Assembly: GCF_018139985.1 (NCBI RefSeq)
Contig: NZ_JAGSOU010000005.1
Coordinates: 1 to 64,000, forward strand
Direction: 5' to 3'
Source: Actibacterium sp. MT2.3-13A
Lineage (GTDB): Bacteria; Pseudomonadota; Alphaproteobacteria; Rhodobacterales; Rhodobacteraceae
Length of the DNA: 64,000 nt
Part shown: one piece after another, positions 4,214 to 9,429 of the stretch
Position numbering within the stretch: the stretch's first letter is position 1
How the letters are laid out: the number at the start of each line of letters is the position of its first letter
Translations under genes and position numbers: made by a program
The notes under the pieces: model-generated
The model's input: the letters and a program-made list of their open reading frames with translations, nothing else
Told to the model about the DNA's origin: nothing
The model's database searches: none

Positions 4214-4776
4214 GGAATTGGCCCTTTCCTCAGTTCGCCCTGCCCGCGCACGCCCGGGCAGCCCGCCCTTGGCCCGGAACGGGAACAGGGCGCGCGCGCC
4301 TCTCCCGCCATCTGCACAGACACTGCTTCGGAAAGAGATGCGCGCGCAAGACATGCGTTCGCGCAGGCGCGCCCGCGCGGCAACGCCGCCGATCGCCGAA
4401 CACCGCGGTTTGCCGGCCGTTGCGCGCGGAAACGCCCCACGGCCCCGGCCAGCCCGTCACCGTCGGAGCGCGCCCCTTGCGCCTGGGCTCACCTATTGAC
4501 CTCGCCGCGCAACGCTTCGGAAACGGCCCCGAAGCGCACGCGATATTCGCCCCTGTCTGCGCCTTGCGTCAGACGAAACGGACCATCCGACAAGAACGCT
4601 TTCGGAGCGCGGGAGGGGCAGAGCGCTCAGGCGTGGGACGCATTCCGGAAAAATAAGGTATCGCTGGTGCACCTGAAGGGAGAAACTTCGAACTCTCTTT
4701 TTTCAGAGCTATCAAGATGGAGGAAGCAACTTCGCACGCTCGGAAGGGATATGATCCAAGAACGAGTGTAGAGGCT
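4214..4776. other. Intergenic region and left boundary of the island
   Basis: No gene is supported in these 563 bases. Base composition drops from GC-rich to AT-richer near 4650-4700, where a sequence (4665-4696) resembles the 3' end of tRNA-Thr (see the attachment-site entry). The rest holds only incidental open frames. Confidence 0.5.
4665..4696. other. Possible degenerate left attachment site
   Basis: This stretch begins TGGTGC and ends TTCGAACTC. The tRNA-Thr 3' end on the other side of the island (9354-9379) also begins TGGTGC and ends CTCGAACTC, but the interior differs by several bases and by length (32 against 26). It sits where the AT-richer DNA begins. It could be a decayed attL or a chance likeness. 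Confidence 0.25.
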
Positions 4777-6996
4777 TCAAAATGGCTTCATCTTTGATCT
4801 CAGCCGCTCTGCCTCCGCCTGCAAGTCCGAGTAATCAATACGCAGAAGTGATGGCTTTGTTACCCAACGCATCCTGGCTGATGCAATCGATTGGTTCGGC
4901 TTCACCGCAAGTTCGAAAAGACGCAACCGATCCACCCCGAACGCTAGCGACAGGGCCTCAGCCTTCCGCGCAATCAAATCGCGGAGTTCTGGAATGTCGA
5001 AGCGCATCAGACCAAAGACTGCGACTTCGTCTCCCTGGATCGCAAAAAACGTGACCGGTTTGGCCCTCAGGTTTTGGAAAACGATGGCGAATTTGTCCGC
5101 GAACTGCGCTCGCCCTTCTCCAGAGAGGTCGCGTATAAACGCGTCACCAGCCAGCCAGAACTCGCCGTTTTCCCTCTCCAAAGCTTTCAAGAGATCAAGA
5201 GTCTTCGCTGGGTATTCTTGTGCAGGAATTGTCGCGTTGGGCCAATCCGGATCTGAGAAGTAAGGTCCGATCACATCCCGGTCCATTCCATCCACCCAAG
5301 CGAAATCGACCCCGTGCTCATCAATTAATTCCTTCAGTCGTTGGTCGGCGCGGTTCTGGGAGATGTACGCACCCAAATGGTCCATCTCATCAAAAAGCAT
5401 CACGTTCTGCATAGCGGCCAAGCCCTGTCGAACATCTAGATAATGTAGGAACTCGCCAGTTCCCCTAAGTATTCGACGTATGACCATGAGATCGTCGATT
5501 GAGAGCGAAATGAAATCGTGTTGTCCTTGGATTGCTGACACGTCAGCACTTTCCTTGATGGAGGCGGAGAACGGCGTAAAAGCTTCCACCGTCAAGCCAA
5601 CGGGAAAGATTTTGCGTAGTTCGGTCGCTTTTACTCTAGCGATCTCTCGATACTTGCCGTCCGGCAACAGTTCGTACAGCGGCGCTTCGGGGCGAGAGTA
5701 GAGGTAATCCACGAAGCGTTTGGTCTGCTTATAGGCGCCTCGGACCAGCTTCTCGACTGTCCGAATGTGGTTTTTCAAACTTTCGGCTGGAGGAGCCAGG
5801 GCCTCGGCCCCGGCCTTGGCCTCAACGTTTATGAGCACATCGCCCAGTAGAATTACACAATCGGTTTCCGCCCATTGCTTTACACCGATTGGATAGTAGA
5901 CATCTTTGTATACCTTCGCGCCCCTAAGATGGCCTGACATCAAATCTGCGAACGCATCTTCTGACATGCGCTTTTGCCGCTTGTTCCACTCCTCTCGATA
6001 TTCAGGATCACGACAGATCAGTGCACGTTGGAGGGAGCGATAAGATGCGTCCCTTATGAAATTGGGTTCGGTGCAGAAATAGCCAGAGTCCAGCTTGACC
6101 AGCGGCTTTACTCTTGCAGGAAGTGTCTTAAACGGTGTTCCAGAGATTTCCGATCCATCATCGAACTCGGTGTTCTCGCCGGGATTGAATGCTAGATCTG
6201 CAAGCAACGCGTCGGGTAAGTCGCTGTGCTTGCTCAAATTGAAAAGGCCACCATTGAACATGTCATCGAAGACGCTGGCTGCCTCACCAGAAGTCTCGGG
6301 CGACGCGCTCTTGTTTTTTTCTACGGCAGTCTCAATCTCCTCGGGCGTCATGCTCTCATCGACACCGACCTCTTTCATGAGTTCAATCATGCGACACCGT
6401 GCGTCGTCAAAACCAACTCGTGGAGCATCTGCGATCTTCTGAATTTGTCTTGCCAGATCATTCGAGGTTATGCCGTAAGTGGCTTGGATTGCCTCGTCGT
6501 GTGGGGCCAATGTGTAGGAAAAAAACTCTTCTTCGAGAACTTGATAGCGCCGACCACGTATCATCACCCAGTTGCTAAGAATCTGAAAGGCCAATCGCCG
6601 GTCTTCGATCTTCAAAGCCGCATTTTCTGGTACCGTTGCTGTAATCTCATACTGGAAGCAAAGCTTCAGCGCCTGATCTGATAGGCGAATGATCTCCTGT
6701 CCCACAGCCTCGTCGAACTCTTCAGGTTCATTGGGCACGCCGTCGACGGAAATTGTTGCGTGGACATATTCCATCGCAAACAGAATTGAATTCTCTTGTT
6801 GGGAAACACTTGGCAAATCATGACGGTCTTTGTCCGGCGCGTGCCTGGAAATCAAGGACAGGAGCACTTGCGCCCAGAAGTAACCAATAAGCGCTTGTGG
6901 CGAATTCCGTCTTATGAGTGCACGAATTGTTTGGCAGGTTTCTCGCAGTTCGAGAAGGACATCTTCTGACGAACGTGTTCCCAAAGGGTTGGTCAT
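4777..6996 (-). CDS. Unknown island protein with PD-(D/E)XK-like nuclease motif
   Basis: A 739-residue protein that I do not recognise as a named family. Around residues 377-395 it has the sequence ETDCVILLGD followed by VLINVEAKAG. This fits a PD-(D/E)XK core, with Asp near 379, Glu near 392 and Lys near 394, on two predicted beta strands. The first 240 residues are mostly helical with a charged, low-complexity stretch near 215-245. Residues 415-460 carry a basic helix (VRGAYKQTKRF). The C-terminal 250 residues show no motif I know. No signal peptide or membrane segment is seen. The ATG at 6996 is preferred because GAGG lies 9 bases upstream. GC content is visibly lower than in flanking genes, indicating transfer. 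The island setting with a serine recombinase makes a defence role plausible, but that is inference. Confidence 0.6.
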   Translation of the reverse strand: MTNPLGTRSSEDVLLELRETCQTIRALIRRNSPQALIGYFWAQVLLSLISRHAPDKDRHDLPSVSQQENSILFAMEYVHATISVDGVPNEPEEFDEAVGQEIIRLSDQALKLCFQYEITATVPENAALKIEDRRLAFQILSNWVMIRGRRYQVLEEEFFSYTLAPHDEAIQATYGITSNDLARQIQKIADAPRVGFDDARCRMIELMKEVGVDESMTPEEIETAVEKNKSASPETSGEAASVFDDMFNGGLFNLSKHSDLPDALLADLAFNPGENTEFDDGSEISGTPFKTLPARVKPLVKLDSGYFCTEPNFIRDASYRSLQRALICRDPEYREEWNKRQKRMSEDAFADLMSGHLRGAKVYKDVYYPIGVKQWAETDCVILLGDVLINVEAKAGAEALAPPAESLKNHIRTVEKLVRGAYKQTKRFVDYLYSRPEAPLYELLPDGKYREIARVKATELRKIFPVGLTVEAFTPFSASIKESADVSAIQGQHDFISLSIDDLMVIRRILRGTGEFLHYLDVRQGLAAMQNVMLFDEMDHLGAYISQNRADQRLKELIDEHGVDFAWVDGMDRDVIGPYFSDPDWPNATIPAQEYPAKTLDLLKALERENGEFWLAGDAFIRDLSGEGRAQFADKFAIVFQNLRAKPVTFFAIQGDEVAVFGLMRFDIPELRDLIARKAEALSLAFGVDRLRLFELAVKPNQSIASARMRWVTKPSLLRIDYSDLQAEAERLRSKMKPF

Positions 6997-7282
6997 AAAC
7001 TGCTTCCTCAAAAATTCTTGGGTTCAGTATCGCAGTCGCCTCCTATTCGCGCGACCCACGATCAAAGCGATCCACTTAAGGGGGAATCTATGGGGATGAT
7101 GAGGTAACTTACAACACTGTTGCGGCGAGATTTTTCGCTCCAGCCATTCGATCAGTGAATTCGTGCCTAGGCAGGCAATACCTATCCTAGCCTGCTCCAG
7201 ATCAGGTTCGCCGCCTCCGAAGGATTTGATCGCACCCGTCAGCCCTCTTCCGAAGCAGCGATTCGTGTAAGTAAAATTGACA

Positions 7283-7296
7283 CTTGGCTTGCCAAG
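7283..7296. repeat. Short inverted repeat, possible operator
   Basis: CTTGGC and GCCAAG form 6-base arms around TT. A TTGACA-like sequence (7278-7283) immediately precedes it, so it may be an operator overlapping a -35 element for rightward transcription into the small gene and recombinase. Confidence 0.35.
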
Positions 7297-7327
7297 CTGA
7301 CTTCCGCCTAGCCAGCGCAAAACCGAA

Positions 7328-7416
7328 ATTGTGACATTTCCCAACCATGCGGACTCTGGCCCTGCCAACTGCTTGGATTCCTTGGAGCCGAGAAACCTGA
7401 ATGTGACATTTTCCAA
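7328..7416. repeat. Pair of 17-base direct repeats
   Basis: The repeats at 7328-7344 and 7400-7416 share 15 of 17 bases around the core TGTGACATTT and start 72 bases apart. They lie upstream of the recombinase operon. They may bind a regulator or the recombinase. Confidence 0.4.
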
Positions 7417-7538
7417 TCTGCTGTGCGCAATTTATTCTAACCAAAACAATGCTTTACATGAAGTCCTCGCTTGCATCAGAAATTAATGCAGGGCGTCATC
7501 CATACCCCGTCAATCCAAACTGCAAGGAGGGTTTGAAC

Positions 7539-7796
7539 ATGCACAATCATGGTTCGAAGAACCTTAGACCTGATCAGGCGCCACCGGAGGCTTCCGGCTG
7601 GGCCGATGATCTCTTTTCCGCCCCGGAACGGATCGCACAGGAGAACGCTGAGTTCACCGAGGCACTAGGGATCATTGTCTCGGCCTTTGTCGATCTCGGG
7701 TTCGGCGCATCGGCGGCGCACTACGCCACGCGCGTCGCTAACGACAACCGCCGCCTGATCGCTATCGCCGAAGAATTCCAGCGCAAAGCCGCCTGA
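7539..7796 (+). CDS. Small hypothetical protein upstream of the recombinase
   Basis: An 85-residue soluble protein. The ATG at 7539 follows AAGGAGG with 8 bases spacing, much better than an upstream ATG at 7449. The N-terminal 35 residues are polar and probably unstructured. Residues 40-85 predict two amphipathic helices (FTEALGIIVSAFVDLGFG and AAHYATRVANDNRRLIAIAEEF). The gene ends 23 bases before the recombinase start and is likely co-transcribed. It could be a small accessory or directionality factor, but no homology supports this. Confidence 0.6.
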   Translation: MHNHGSKNLRPDQAPPEASGWADDLFSAPERIAQENAEFTEALGIIVSAFVDLGFGASAAHYATRVANDNRRLIAIAEEFQRKAA

Positions 7797-7819
7797 CACC
7801 CTCAATGAAAGGTAAAGTA

Positions 7820-9391
7820 ATGATCGTCAAATCCCCCGATACCCTTCCCAAGAAAAAGTGCATCATCTATGCGCGGGTTTCCTCGTCCAAGCAGACCAGC
7901 GACGGATCCGGCCTTACCAGTCAGGAGCGAAGCTGCCGCGAATACGCGGAGCGTAAGAACTACGAGGTCGTGGAAGTCTTCACCGATGTCATCTCGGGGC
8001 GCTATGCCGAGCGCCCGGGGATGAACGCCCTGCTCGCCTATCTCCGGCAAGCACACACGACAGACTGCGTCGTCGTCGTCGACGACATCTCCCGCTTCGC
8101 GCGTGACGTGTCCACACATGCCACGCTTCGGGACAAGATCACCGCCAGCGGCGCGAAGATCGAAAGCCCGAACCAGAAATTCGGCGAAGACGCTGGGAGC
8201 CGCTTCATCGAGACGATCATGGCAGCTATTGCGGAACATGACCGCCTCAAGAACGCGGAGCAGTCGCACCGCAGGACCGTTGCCCGCCTGCAGAACGGCT
8301 ACTGGGTGTTTCACGCCCCGATTGGCTATCGCTACGAGAAGGCTTCGGGCGGCGGGAAGCGGCTTGTCCCCGACGAACCTCTGGCGAGCATCGTCAAGGA
8401 GGCGCTGGAAGGTTACGCGGCCGGTCGCTTTCAGACGCAAGTGGAGGTGAAACGCTTTCTAGAATCCAAGCCCGAAATTCCCAAGAGCTACAAGGGCACC
8501 GAAGTCCATTTCGACAAGGTGAAACGGCTGCTCACCAATACCCTCTACGCTGGGTATTTGCAGTTCCCGAAATGGGACATCCCGCTGACCAAGGCACAGC
8601 ATGACCCCCTGATCAGCTACGCGACCCACCAGGTCATTCAGGACCGCCTCAGGGAGCGGAGCGTGGCCCCCGCACGGAAGGACATCAACAAGGATTTCCC
8701 CCTACGTGGCTTTCTCATCTGCGAGACCTGTGGTCATCGGCTCACCGCTTGTTGGGCAAAGAGCCGCACCGGCAAGAAGTATCCCTACTACCTGTGCCAA
8801 TATCGGGGCTGCTCCGAGAAGGGAAAATCCATCCCGCGCGACAAGCTGGAAACGCAGTTCGGCAACCACCTGAAATCGTTGGTGCCAGCTCAAACCACGT
8901 TCGAACTCGCGGAACGCATGTTCAGGGATGCGTGGGACGATCGGAGCAATTCCGCATCGTCTGAAACCAAACGGCTCAAGACGAAGGCTCGCCAGATTGA
9001 CCGTGACATTCACAATTTGCTCAAGCGTCTTGTTCAAACCGGCAACGAAAAGGCGATCTCTGCCTACGAGAACCGCATCTCTGAACTGGAGCAAGAGAAG
9101 GCCCTCATCGAGGAGGAAGCGGCCAGAATCGCCACCCCCGAGCATTCGTTCGACGAAATGTTCGAACACTCGATGCGCTTTCTCGCAAACCCCTATGAAA
9201 TCTGGGAAAACGGTGACCTTGAGACCAAGAAAACCGTGCTTCGACTGGTATTTTCCGCCCCGCTTGTCGTCAGCCGGAAAACGGGTGTTCAAACCGGAGA
9301 AACCACCTTTCCCTTCAAGGCGTTAAAGTTCTTGGAGGGATCGGATTTTAAAGTGGTGCCCCCAGAGAGACTCGAACTCCCGACCCTCTGA
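7820..9391 (+). CDS. Large serine recombinase/integrase
   Basis: Site-specific recombinase of 523 residues that would integrate and excise the island. The N-terminal resolvase domain begins with CIIYARVSSSKQ; the first Ser of that motif, about residue 21, is the expected nucleophile. It continues with DDISRFARD and the Arg-rich helix region. A recombinase domain follows (APIGYRYEK; about residues 160-275). A zinc ribbon with CETCGHRL and YYLCQYRGC spans about 295-335, and a coiled-coil region lies at 370-440. The protein ends PPERLELPTL, the read-through signature of an integrase whose end lies inside a tRNA gene; the last 38 bases overlap tRNA-Thr. ATG at 7820 follows AAAGG; ATG at 7805 lacks a ribosome binding site. 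Confidence 0.9.
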   Translation: MIVKSPDTLPKKKCIIYARVSSSKQTSDGSGLTSQERSCREYAERKNYEVVEVFTDVISGRYAERPGMNALLAYLRQAHTTDCVVVVDDISRFARDVSTHATLRDKITASGAKIESPNQKFGEDAGSRFIETIMAAIAEHDRLKNAEQSHRRTVARLQNGYWVFHAPIGYRYEKASGGGKRLVPDEPLASIVKEALEGYAAGRFQTQVEVKRFLESKPEIPKSYKGTEVHFDKVKRLLTNTLYAGYLQFPKWDIPLTKAQHDPLISYATHQVIQDRLRERSVAPARKDINKDFPLRGFLICETCGHRLTACWAKSRTGKKYPYYLCQYRGCSEKGKSIPRDKLETQFGNHLKSLVPAQTTFELAERMFRDAWDDRSNSASSETKRLKTKARQIDRDIHNLLKRLVQTGNEKAISAYENRISELEQEKALIEEEAARIATPEHSFDEMFEHSMRFLANPYEIWENGDLETKKTVLRLVFSAPLVVSRKTGVQTGETTFPFKALKFLEGSDFKVVPPERLELPTL

Positions 9392-9429
9392 TTACAAATC
9401 AGATGCTCTACCAGCTGAGCTATAGGGGC
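9354..9429 (-). tRNA. tRNA-Thr (anticodon TGT)
   Basis: A complete 76-base cloverleaf on the minus strand. The acceptor stem is GCCCCTA with TGGGGGC (one G-T pair), the D stem GCTC/GAGC, the anticodon stem TCTGA/TCAGA with loop TTTGTAA, and the T arm GGGAG-TTCGAGT-CTCTC. The 3' ACCA is encoded. Anticodon TGT reads ACA and, by wobble, other Thr codons. Its 3' half is the apparent integration target of the serine recombinase, whose gene overlaps it convergently. Confidence 0.95.

What the first reader, a model, noticed from the sequence alone, without database searches (positions are those of the whole stretch)
4777..6996. Unrecognised 739-residue island protein with a PD-(D/E)XK-like core
ETDCVILLGD and VLINVEAKAG fit a restriction-type nuclease core inside a large protein with no other known domain. 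A lone large nuclease-like gene as island cargo is a common sign of an anti-phage system. It could be a new single-gene defence family.
Basis: partly seen in the sequence, partly recalled or inferred. Interest (0 to 1): 0.65.

Follow-up and report, generated by a model that had tools for sequence, protein, structure and literature searches.

The report
Undescribed mobile PD-(D/E)XK defence-like nuclease
A small mobile DNA island carries one large gene for a DNA-cutting-type enzyme from a widespread protein family that I found described nowhere; it probably helps bacteria stop viruses or other invading DNA, but that has not been tested.

Summary
Window 4777-6996 (-) is an intact 739-aa gene. 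Its predicted structure (pLDDT 87.5, pTM 0.87) has a PD-(D/E)XK core at residues 333-455; E346, E377, D379, E392 and Q424 are identical in 81 of 81 aligned sequences, K394 in 77 (Arg in four). It passes no Pfam or NCBIfam cut-off, and PADLOC and PHROGs give nothing convincing.

It belongs to a family of mostly 730-790 aa proteins: at least 78 genome loci (capped list), 9 plasmid records (two only fragments), 7 of 5,426 E. coli genomes and 6 viral contigs. RefSeq names members 'SEC-C', 'YecA family', 'NERD' or hypothetical. Most relatives end in a SEC-C zinc tail (71 of 80); the window protein lacks it. The gene rides on plasmids, an ICE-like island and prophages, shows no fixed partner, and lies in defence-rich islands (two loci have Upx next door).

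The only PDB match at Foldseek E below 0.001 is Upx, a listed antiphage nuclease, but sequence profiles do not join the families. Most likely it is a single-gene immune nuclease: the fold is well supported, the role is inferred from context. Ten paper searches found no description. New variant of a known kind; moderate interest.

The parts
4777..6996 (-). 739-aa PD-(D/E)XK protein, the finding itself
   Evidence: intact ORF, ATG start; AF2 pLDDT 87.5, pTM 0.87; homologues
6187..6996 (-). N-terminal helical region, residues 1-270; possible sensor or assembly part
   Evidence: secondary structure of the model; function inferred
5632..6000 (-). PD-(D/E)XK core, residues 333-455
   Evidence: model; Nt.BspD6I VIA Z 10.5, rmsd 3.5, 165 aligned; NERD Pfam hit in 4 of 45 family members
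5959..5961 (-). Glu346 codon
   Evidence: 81 of 81; codon checked
5860..5868 (-). Glu377-Thr-Asp379
   Evidence: E and D 81 of 81
5815..5823 (-). Glu392-Ala-Lys394, the ExK motif
   Evidence: E 81 of 81, K 77 of 81 with Arg in 4
5725..5727 (-). Gln424 in the helix after the core strands
   Evidence: 81 of 81
5365..5391 (-). second conserved block DEMDHLGAY, residues 536-544, role unknown
   Evidence: D536 and E537 81 of 81, D539 79 of 81, H540 80 of 81
4780..5208 (-). C-terminal alpha/beta region, residues 597-739, ending without the SEC-C tail of relatives
   Evidence: model of 470-739, pLDDT 91.3; no SEC-C pattern in the three frames of the coding strand over 600 nt downstream
7805..9391 (+). 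large serine recombinase, probable island integrase
   Evidence: Resolvase 3.3e-28, zinc ribbon 4.6e-8, Recombinase 2.7e-4; phrog_95 integrase 5.3e-77
9354..9429 (-). tRNA-Thr (TGT), probable insertion site
   Evidence: ARAGORN; Rfam tRNA 71.6 bits at 9357-9429
7449..7796 (+). 115-aa ORF of unknown role inside the island
   Evidence: ORF only; no family hit

Best explanation
The gene encodes a stand-alone, metal-dependent PD-(D/E)XK nuclease that travels as island cargo and most likely acts as a single-gene immune effector. The helical N-terminal part would keep the protein assembled and quiet, an infection cue would release or load the nuclease, and the nuclease would then cut invading (and perhaps host) DNA, stopping replication. 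In most relatives a SEC-C zinc tail adds a docking part that this lineage does without. Shown by computation: intact gene, nuclease fold, conserved catalytic-type residues, mobile carriage, no fixed partner detected. Inferred: nuclease activity, DNA as the substrate, the trigger, and the immune role.
For: Fold and residues. Family spread: 78 genome loci kept from 89 confirmed stretches under a cap, 9 plasmid records, 5 of them with at least 80% cover, 7 of 5,426 E. coli genomes, 6 viral contigs. Rare and patchy: 1 of 101 genomes, the window's own, among relatives; 2 of 299 full length in the phylum sample, own genome included. Copies in Lysobacter, Marichromatium and Halomonas have end branches of 0.0056-0.011, which implies recent transfer. 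Prophage cargo: in L141 the gene starts 55 bp after a phage integrase; in L144 it sits beside tail genes. Defence genes in the same islands: Lit-family protein beside the Aliarcobacter member; AbiEii 2 kb, HEPN/Toprim and AbiV 6-7 kb from the Bradyrhizobium member; HigA, PIN, NERD and DUF262 proteins in E. coli; PADLOC hits among neighbours such as MkoA 1e-252, PD-T7-1 8.9e-192, Upx 1.3e-137, Old 3.7e-60 and AriA 1.5e-37. PADLOC models hit at 1e-10 by 71 background ORFs: 13, against 31 and 180 for two sets of 71 neighbours. Upx is the only PDB chain at Foldseek E below 0.001.
Against: No activity data exist. The PADLOC counts are of models, not of proteins, and one ATPase can hit dozens; ORFs more than 6 kb from the gene in the same loci hit 63 models, so the enrichment belongs to whole islands rather than to the gene's own neighbours. 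Pfam finds housekeeping genes among neighbours too, such as ribosomal L13, RF3 and GMP synthase. In the window itself the companions found are the recombinase and a small ORF, neither of which looks like a defence gene. The Upx fold match has TM-scores of only 0.17 and 0.12 and rmsd 18.8 in Foldseek. Four of 81 relatives have Arg for the Lys. The model is less sure (mean pLDDT 75) around E392 and K394.
Confidence: 0.65

Rival explanations
1. It serves the mobile element rather than the host's antiviral immunity: it excludes or destroys competing plasmids or related elements, or secures the element's maintenance, with the same nuclease.
For: Carried by plasmids, an ICE-like island and prophages, at times beside the integrase: a BLAST-detectable integrase lies within 2 kb in 8 of 78 loci, a lower bound from three probes, with near-duplicates among the 8.
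Against: A place beside an integrase is also usual for anti-phage cargo (general knowledge); no partner antitoxin recurs.
Confidence: 0.2
2. It is a modification-dependent (type IV-like) restriction enzyme that recognises modified invader DNA through the N-terminal or C-terminal part.
For: Stand-alone PD-(D/E)XK protein without a recurring methyltransferase or partner; the core matches a McrBC chain (6hz4_M, Z 8.0) and Nt.BspD6I (Z 10.5).
Against: No modified-base reader was recognised; the C-terminal model gave no PDB match at Foldseek E 0.001 and no VIA Z of 5 or more, which is inconclusive.
Confidence: 0.15
3. It is an ordinary DNA repair or housekeeping nuclease that happens to be mobile, or the window copy is a decaying outlier with no function.
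For: Long end branch of 1.6; SEC-C tail missing; several relatives have split frames.
Against: Frame of 739 codons intact and all catalytic-type positions kept; not found in 100 of 101 related genomes, unlike a housekeeping gene.
Confidence: 0.1

Closest known systems
Upx (PADLOC PDLC02221; PDB 9wuf, 'Restriction endonuclease'; listed under nuclease-type antiphage systems in a table of PMC10855318, passage seen, reference [19] there, which I recall as Gao et al. 2020)
   Same: PD-(D/E)XK-type protein listed as an antiphage system; the fold match covering more than the core: Foldseek E 7.4e-4, prob 0.96; VIA Z 10.0, rmsd 5.5, 408 aligned, model 14-590 to chain 28-533. Upx genes lie 141 and 121 bp from a family member in L060 and L075; against the Upx of L101 they are 26.5% and 25.6% identical over about 1,260 residues.
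   Different: 1,272 aa against 739; the intact D..ExK (GDIDLLAW..VIECK) of two Upx sequences lies near their C-terminus, while the half matched by fold lacks it by my reading; no PADLOC Upx hit; profile comparison not significant, prob 0.3.
E. coli WP_049590371.1, 'nuclease-related domain-containing protein', 716 aa
   Same: hhalign prob 99.4, E 8.4e-22 over profile columns 268-777; the SEC-C tail adds to the score by an amount not separated; encoded 373 bp upstream of the E. coli family member.
   Different: QxK in place of ExK and most of the DExDHLG block not kept (read); outside the family as gathered here.
Shedu (SduA, PDB 8ps4)
   Same: PD-(D/E)XK defence nuclease (recalled as a single protein); similar core, VIA Z 6.6, rmsd 4.2, 154 aligned.
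   Different: Z lies in the range where only the common fold may be shared; no hit named Shedu or SduA.
NERD nucleases (Pfam PF08378)
   Same: Hit in 4 of 45 family members, best E 3.4e-4; RefSeq calls the Lactococcus member a NERD protein.
   Different: The window protein itself has no NERD hit at E up to 1.

Membership tests
PD-(D/E)XK nuclease superfamily | core of helix, three strands, helix, further strands | tested here: met
   residues 333-455 of the model; Nt.BspD6I Z 10.5, McrBC chain M Z 8.0, Can2 Z 7.8 in VIA
PD-(D/E)XK nuclease superfamily | acidic residue plus (D/E)xK on adjacent strands | tested here: met
   D379 and E392 81 of 81, K394 77 of 81
PD-(D/E)XK nuclease superfamily | metal-dependent phosphodiester cleavage | not testable with these tools
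   needs purified protein
Upx | match to the PADLOC Upx model | tested here: not met
   no Upx hit at E up to 1; none in 45 family members at 0.01
Upx | length near 1,270 aa with the intact D..ExK near the C-terminus | tested here: not met
   739 aa, core at 333-455; alignment of two Upx sequences
Upx | shared fold of the N-terminal half | tested here: inconclusive
   Foldseek E 7.4e-4 but TM 0.17/0.12; VIA Z 10.0 over 408 residues at rmsd 5.5; hhalign prob 0.3
NERD (PF08378) | match above Pfam's gathering score | tested here: not met
   window protein no hit; 4 of 45 relatives hit, best E 3.4e-4
Shedu | SduA family sequence match | tested here: inconclusive
   no hit of that name in Pfam, NCBIfam or PADLOC; weak core similarity, Z 6.6
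SEC-C / 'YecA family' as named in RefSeq | C-terminal CxCGSGxKxKxC(H/C) zinc motif | tested here: not met
   absent from the window protein and from three frames of 600 nt downstream; present in 71 of 80 relatives of at least 600 aa
anti-phage defence system | protection against phage infection | not testable with these tools
   context only

The most novel reading that the evidence does not exclude
PD-(D/E)XK-SEC-C proteins form an undescribed superfamily of single-gene immune nucleases in which the zinc tail is the sensor or docking part (SEC-C binds SecB or ribosomal sites in SecA, recalled), so that the nuclease watches protein export or translation for phage takeover; the window's branch dropped the tail and relies on another cue. 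Tandem relatives, as in E. coli and Providencia, would be sensor-effector pairs.
Probability: 0.15. Interest if true: 0.75.

Novelty: new variant of a known kind. Interest (0 to 1): 0.48.

Why it matters
Genes of this family are named after a short C-terminal tail ('SEC-C', 'YecA family'), after NERD, or 'hypothetical', so defence scans are likely to miss them: the PADLOC (2023) and NCBIfam (2026) copies searched here gave the window protein no convincing hit. If it protects, it adds a widespread stand-alone nuclease to the immune repertoire, with natural members with and without the zinc tail that make the tail's role directly testable.

Tried and rejected
Sequence-only searches for the window protein gave nothing convincing: Pfam (best HisKA_3, 0.013, below cut-off), NCBIfam none, PADLOC PDC-M23B 7.3e-4 over 35 residues, PHROGs 0.19, PDB none at E up to 5. 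Phage genome records gave no match to the window protein; with the Aliarcobacter relative 22 records matched, and the 20 listed do so only at its C-terminal end from residue 685 on. Among 45 family members, PADLOC's PDC-S12 (best 3.4e-9), E1-E2 and several E2 models hit up to 38, the same number as Pfam SEC-C; I take these as tail matches, but the matched positions were not shown.

Membership of Upx by sequence was tried and not supported (one search compared L075:12155-15712, which is not Upx, so it says nothing). Upx itself is rare: 1 of 299 and 1 of 274 genomes, the same genome both times; on plasmids two partial Salmonella matches. A sensor in the C-terminal part was sought with a model of residues 470-739: best Foldseek E 6.6e-3 (SSO0001, a Cas4 protein as I recall), no VIA Z of 5 or more. 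Several weak rows there are nucleases of the PD-(D/E)XK type (RecE, MGME1, splicing endonuclease; class recalled), which hints at a second, degenerate nuclease-like part, but the scores do not support a claim. The viral structure library gave nothing below E 0.001.

PADLOC neighbour counts: 213 neighbour ORFs were listed, 142 scanned, 71 left out; each answer shows 25 models only. The first control, 71 drawn from 166 ORFs over 6 kb away in the same loci, was itself rich in defence models (63) and so does not show enrichment at the gene. The second, 71 drawn from 107 ORFs of 20 arbitrary 7-kb stretches, gave 13. In a profile search of 299 genomes 294 had a 'match', but only two places are full length (G178 and the window's own); the other places listed cover only the profile's C-terminal end, mostly in frames near 900 aa that look like SecA tails (the list is cut).

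Island ends: none of the direct repeats listed (20 of 34 families) joins the tRNA end with the left side, as a serine recombinase would allow. The empty site in relatives was not worked out: homologues of the flanking oxidoreductase reach at best 58% identity in relatives and I did not examine their surroundings. A DNA search of the whole island against plasmids listed only tRNA-sized matches in the 10 of 135 records shown; the recombinase matched one plasmid record over 45%. No sigma-70-like promoter at 4500-7900.

Papers: ten searches gave no paper describing the family. In one search no paper of the library held 'SEC-C', 'phage' and 'nuclease' together; some searches showed only part of their lists (for example 20 of 659). 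Term look-ups in six papers gave passages in four and no occurrence in two. Otherwise only listings and starts of abstracts were seen. Supplements could not be read, so lists of predicted systems there are unchecked.

Full report
What is there. Window 4777-6996 on the minus strand is a 739-codon open frame with an ATG start and a GAGGAAG stretch 6 nt before it. G+C is 0.516 in the gene, 0.539 over 4777-9391 and 0.684 in the rest of the window (profile). The same stretch holds a large serine recombinase (7805-9391, +) whose 3' end overlaps a tRNA-Thr gene (9354-9429, -), and a 115-aa ORF without a family. This is the anatomy of a small integrated island at a tRNA gene. Among 101 related genomes only the window's own holds the gene.

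Is the nuclease core real? Profile libraries do not see it. With relatives aligned, E346, E377, D379, E392 and Q424 are identical in 81 of 81 sequences and K394 in 77 of 81, Arg in the other four. The 81 are the window plus 80 relatives of at least 600 aa; four loci with shorter frames (L056, L058, L060, L080) were dropped and L008 gave no frame. AlphaFold2 with 65 sequences gives pLDDT 87.5 and pTM 0.87, with helix 333-352, strands 361-369, 375-384 and 387-394, helix 407-434 and further strands: a PD-(D/E)XK arrangement with E346 on the first helix, D379 on the second strand and E392-x-K394 at the end of the third. Confidence dips to a mean of 75-83 over residues 391-420. VIA matches to solved structures: Nt.BspD6I Z 10.5, rmsd 3.5, 165 aligned; a McrBC chain Z 8.0; Can2 7.8; SduA 6.6. 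The first aligned pair 340/412 would put E346 near E418, the residue changed in 6qnz; that is an inference from the range, since the alignment itself was not shown. The D-x12-ExK spacing followed by a Gln resembles RecB-type nucleases (recalled).

The family. tblastn found 9 plasmid records, 5 with at least 80% cover and two of the others covering only 30%. A profile scan of genome contigs confirmed 89 stretches, of which the best 80 were kept as 78 loci, so 78 is a lower bound. Their record titles and the tree show Pseudomonadota for the most part, and Bacillota, Thermodesulfobacteriota, Planctomycetota, Verrucomicrobiota, Nitrospirota and Nitrospinota. Seven of 5,426 E. coli genomes hold a relative; the three annotated stretches viewed share one island with a tyrosine recombinase and transfer genes, and in one of the three the gene is split into two frames. 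Six viral contigs hold one. Annotation names: 'SEC-C metal-binding domain-containing', 'YecA family', 'NERD domain-containing', 'hypothetical'. Of 84 extracted relatives 70 are 730-790 aa long. In a phylum sample 2 of 299 genomes hold a full-length member, one being the window's own.

The SEC-C tail. 71 of the 80 relatives of at least 600 aa carry the motif in their last 60 residues; Pfam SEC-C hits 38 of 45 members scanned. The nine without it are L006, L007, L010, L012, L016, L029, L039, L046 and L051. L010 and L012 still have the motif encoded just beyond their stop, and L039 and L016 end 44 and 53 nt before the end of their sequence, so cannot be judged fully; L006 has a separate SEC-C ORF after an IS30 transposase. 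The window shows no such motif in three frames of 600 nt downstream. In a tree of 67 of the 81 rows, with 45 residues cut from the end of SEC-C rows, holding the window together with L016, L029 and L046 gives a log-likelihood 6.92 higher than the free search and p-AU 0.727. One loss is thus allowed but not proved: the group was named after a first tree had been seen, and the window has a long branch of 1.6.

Context. Up to three ORFs on each side were compared in 77 loci; no neighbour family recurs in more than 5, and that cluster includes annotated IS3 transposases. So no obligate partner is visible, though distant kinship between neighbours could be missed. Near-identical copies in Lysobacter, Marichromatium and Halomonas (end branches 0.0056-0.011) show recent transfer. 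In L141 the gene starts 55 bp after a phage tyrosine integrase (phrog_1, 9e-52), and in L144 it sits beside tail and tape-measure genes; three neighbours in L142 matched no PHROG. A BLAST-detectable integrase lies within 2 kb in 8 of 78 loci, a lower bound from three probes. Nearby genes include a Lit-family protein, AbiEii, HEPN/Toprim and AbiV proteins, HigA, PIN, NERD and DUF262 proteins, and PADLOC hits such as MkoA, PD-T7-1, PD-T7-5, Upx, Old and AriA. PADLOC models hit at 1e-10: 31 and 180 for two sets of 71 neighbours, 63 for 71 ORFs further than 6 kb in the same loci, and 13 for 71 ORFs from arbitrary stretches. These are counts of models, not of proteins, and one ATPase can hit dozens. 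Pfam on the second set also shows conjugation and housekeeping genes. The honest reading is that the gene lives in defence-rich islands, not that its immediate neighbours are special.

Closest known things. Upx is the only PDB chain with Foldseek E below 0.001 (7.4e-4, prob 0.96), but with TM-scores of 0.17 and 0.12 and rmsd 18.8; VIA gives Z 10.0, rmsd 5.5 over 408 residues, model 14-590 to chain 28-533. That 9wuf is Upx was checked: the PADLOC-found Upx L101 matches it over its whole length. Sequence profiles do not join the two (prob 0.3), and the intact D..ExK of Upx is near its C-terminus, not in the matched half by my reading. So it may work like Upx but is not shown to be Upx. Upx genes lie next to family members in L060 and L075. 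A true sequence relative is the 716-aa E. coli protein encoded just upstream of the family member (hhalign 99.4, E 8.4e-22, SEC-C included), with QxK instead of ExK.

Mechanism and limits. The best-supported reading is a stand-alone metal-dependent nuclease released or loaded by an infection cue. The fold, residues, mobility and lack of a detected partner are shown by computation. Cleavage, DNA as target, the cue and protection are inferred. The strongest points against are the absence of any functional test, the absence of a recognisable defence gene beside the window copy itself, the four Arg variants, and the unclean neighbour control.

Print record. Ten paper searches and term look-ups in six papers (passages; no occurrence) gave no description of the family. 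No paper in the library holds 'SEC-C', 'phage' and 'nuclease' together. The library is limited to open licences, several lists were cut, and supplements could not be read, so a prediction in a supplementary list is possible.

Noticed in passing
L099:9112-11262 and L043:7438-9588: A 716-aa PD-(D/E)XK protein lies about 370 bp upstream of the family member in E. coli and Providencia. The E. coli copy ends in SEC-C and is a distant relative (hhalign 99.4); the Providencia copy clusters with it. Possible tandem pair.
   Followed up: partly
L060:978-4742 and L075:5759-9535: Upx genes of 1,254 and 1,258 aa lie 141 and 121 bp from the family member in a planctomycete and a sphingomonad; the L060 family member is itself split into two frames.
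   Followed up: partly
window 5365-5391: A second conserved block, D536-E537-x-D539-H540-L-G-x-Y544, outside the nuclease core has no known role.
   Followed up: no
window 4780-5208: The C-terminal alpha/beta part gives only weak fold matches, several of them to nucleases: perhaps a degenerate second nuclease-like part.
   Followed up: partly
L006:5358-8718: On a Lactococcus plasmid an IS30 transposase separates the nuclease part from a SEC-C ORF.
   Followed up: no
L010 and L012, downstream of the ORF: The SEC-C motif is still encoded beyond the stop, out of frame in L010 and in frame in L012, so recent loss or sequencing error.
   Followed up: no
window 7449-7796 and 7024-7416: A 115-aa ORF (+) between the gene and the recombinase has no family; a 130-aa frame (-) beside it was not scanned. 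Either could be a regulator, or no gene.
   Followed up: no
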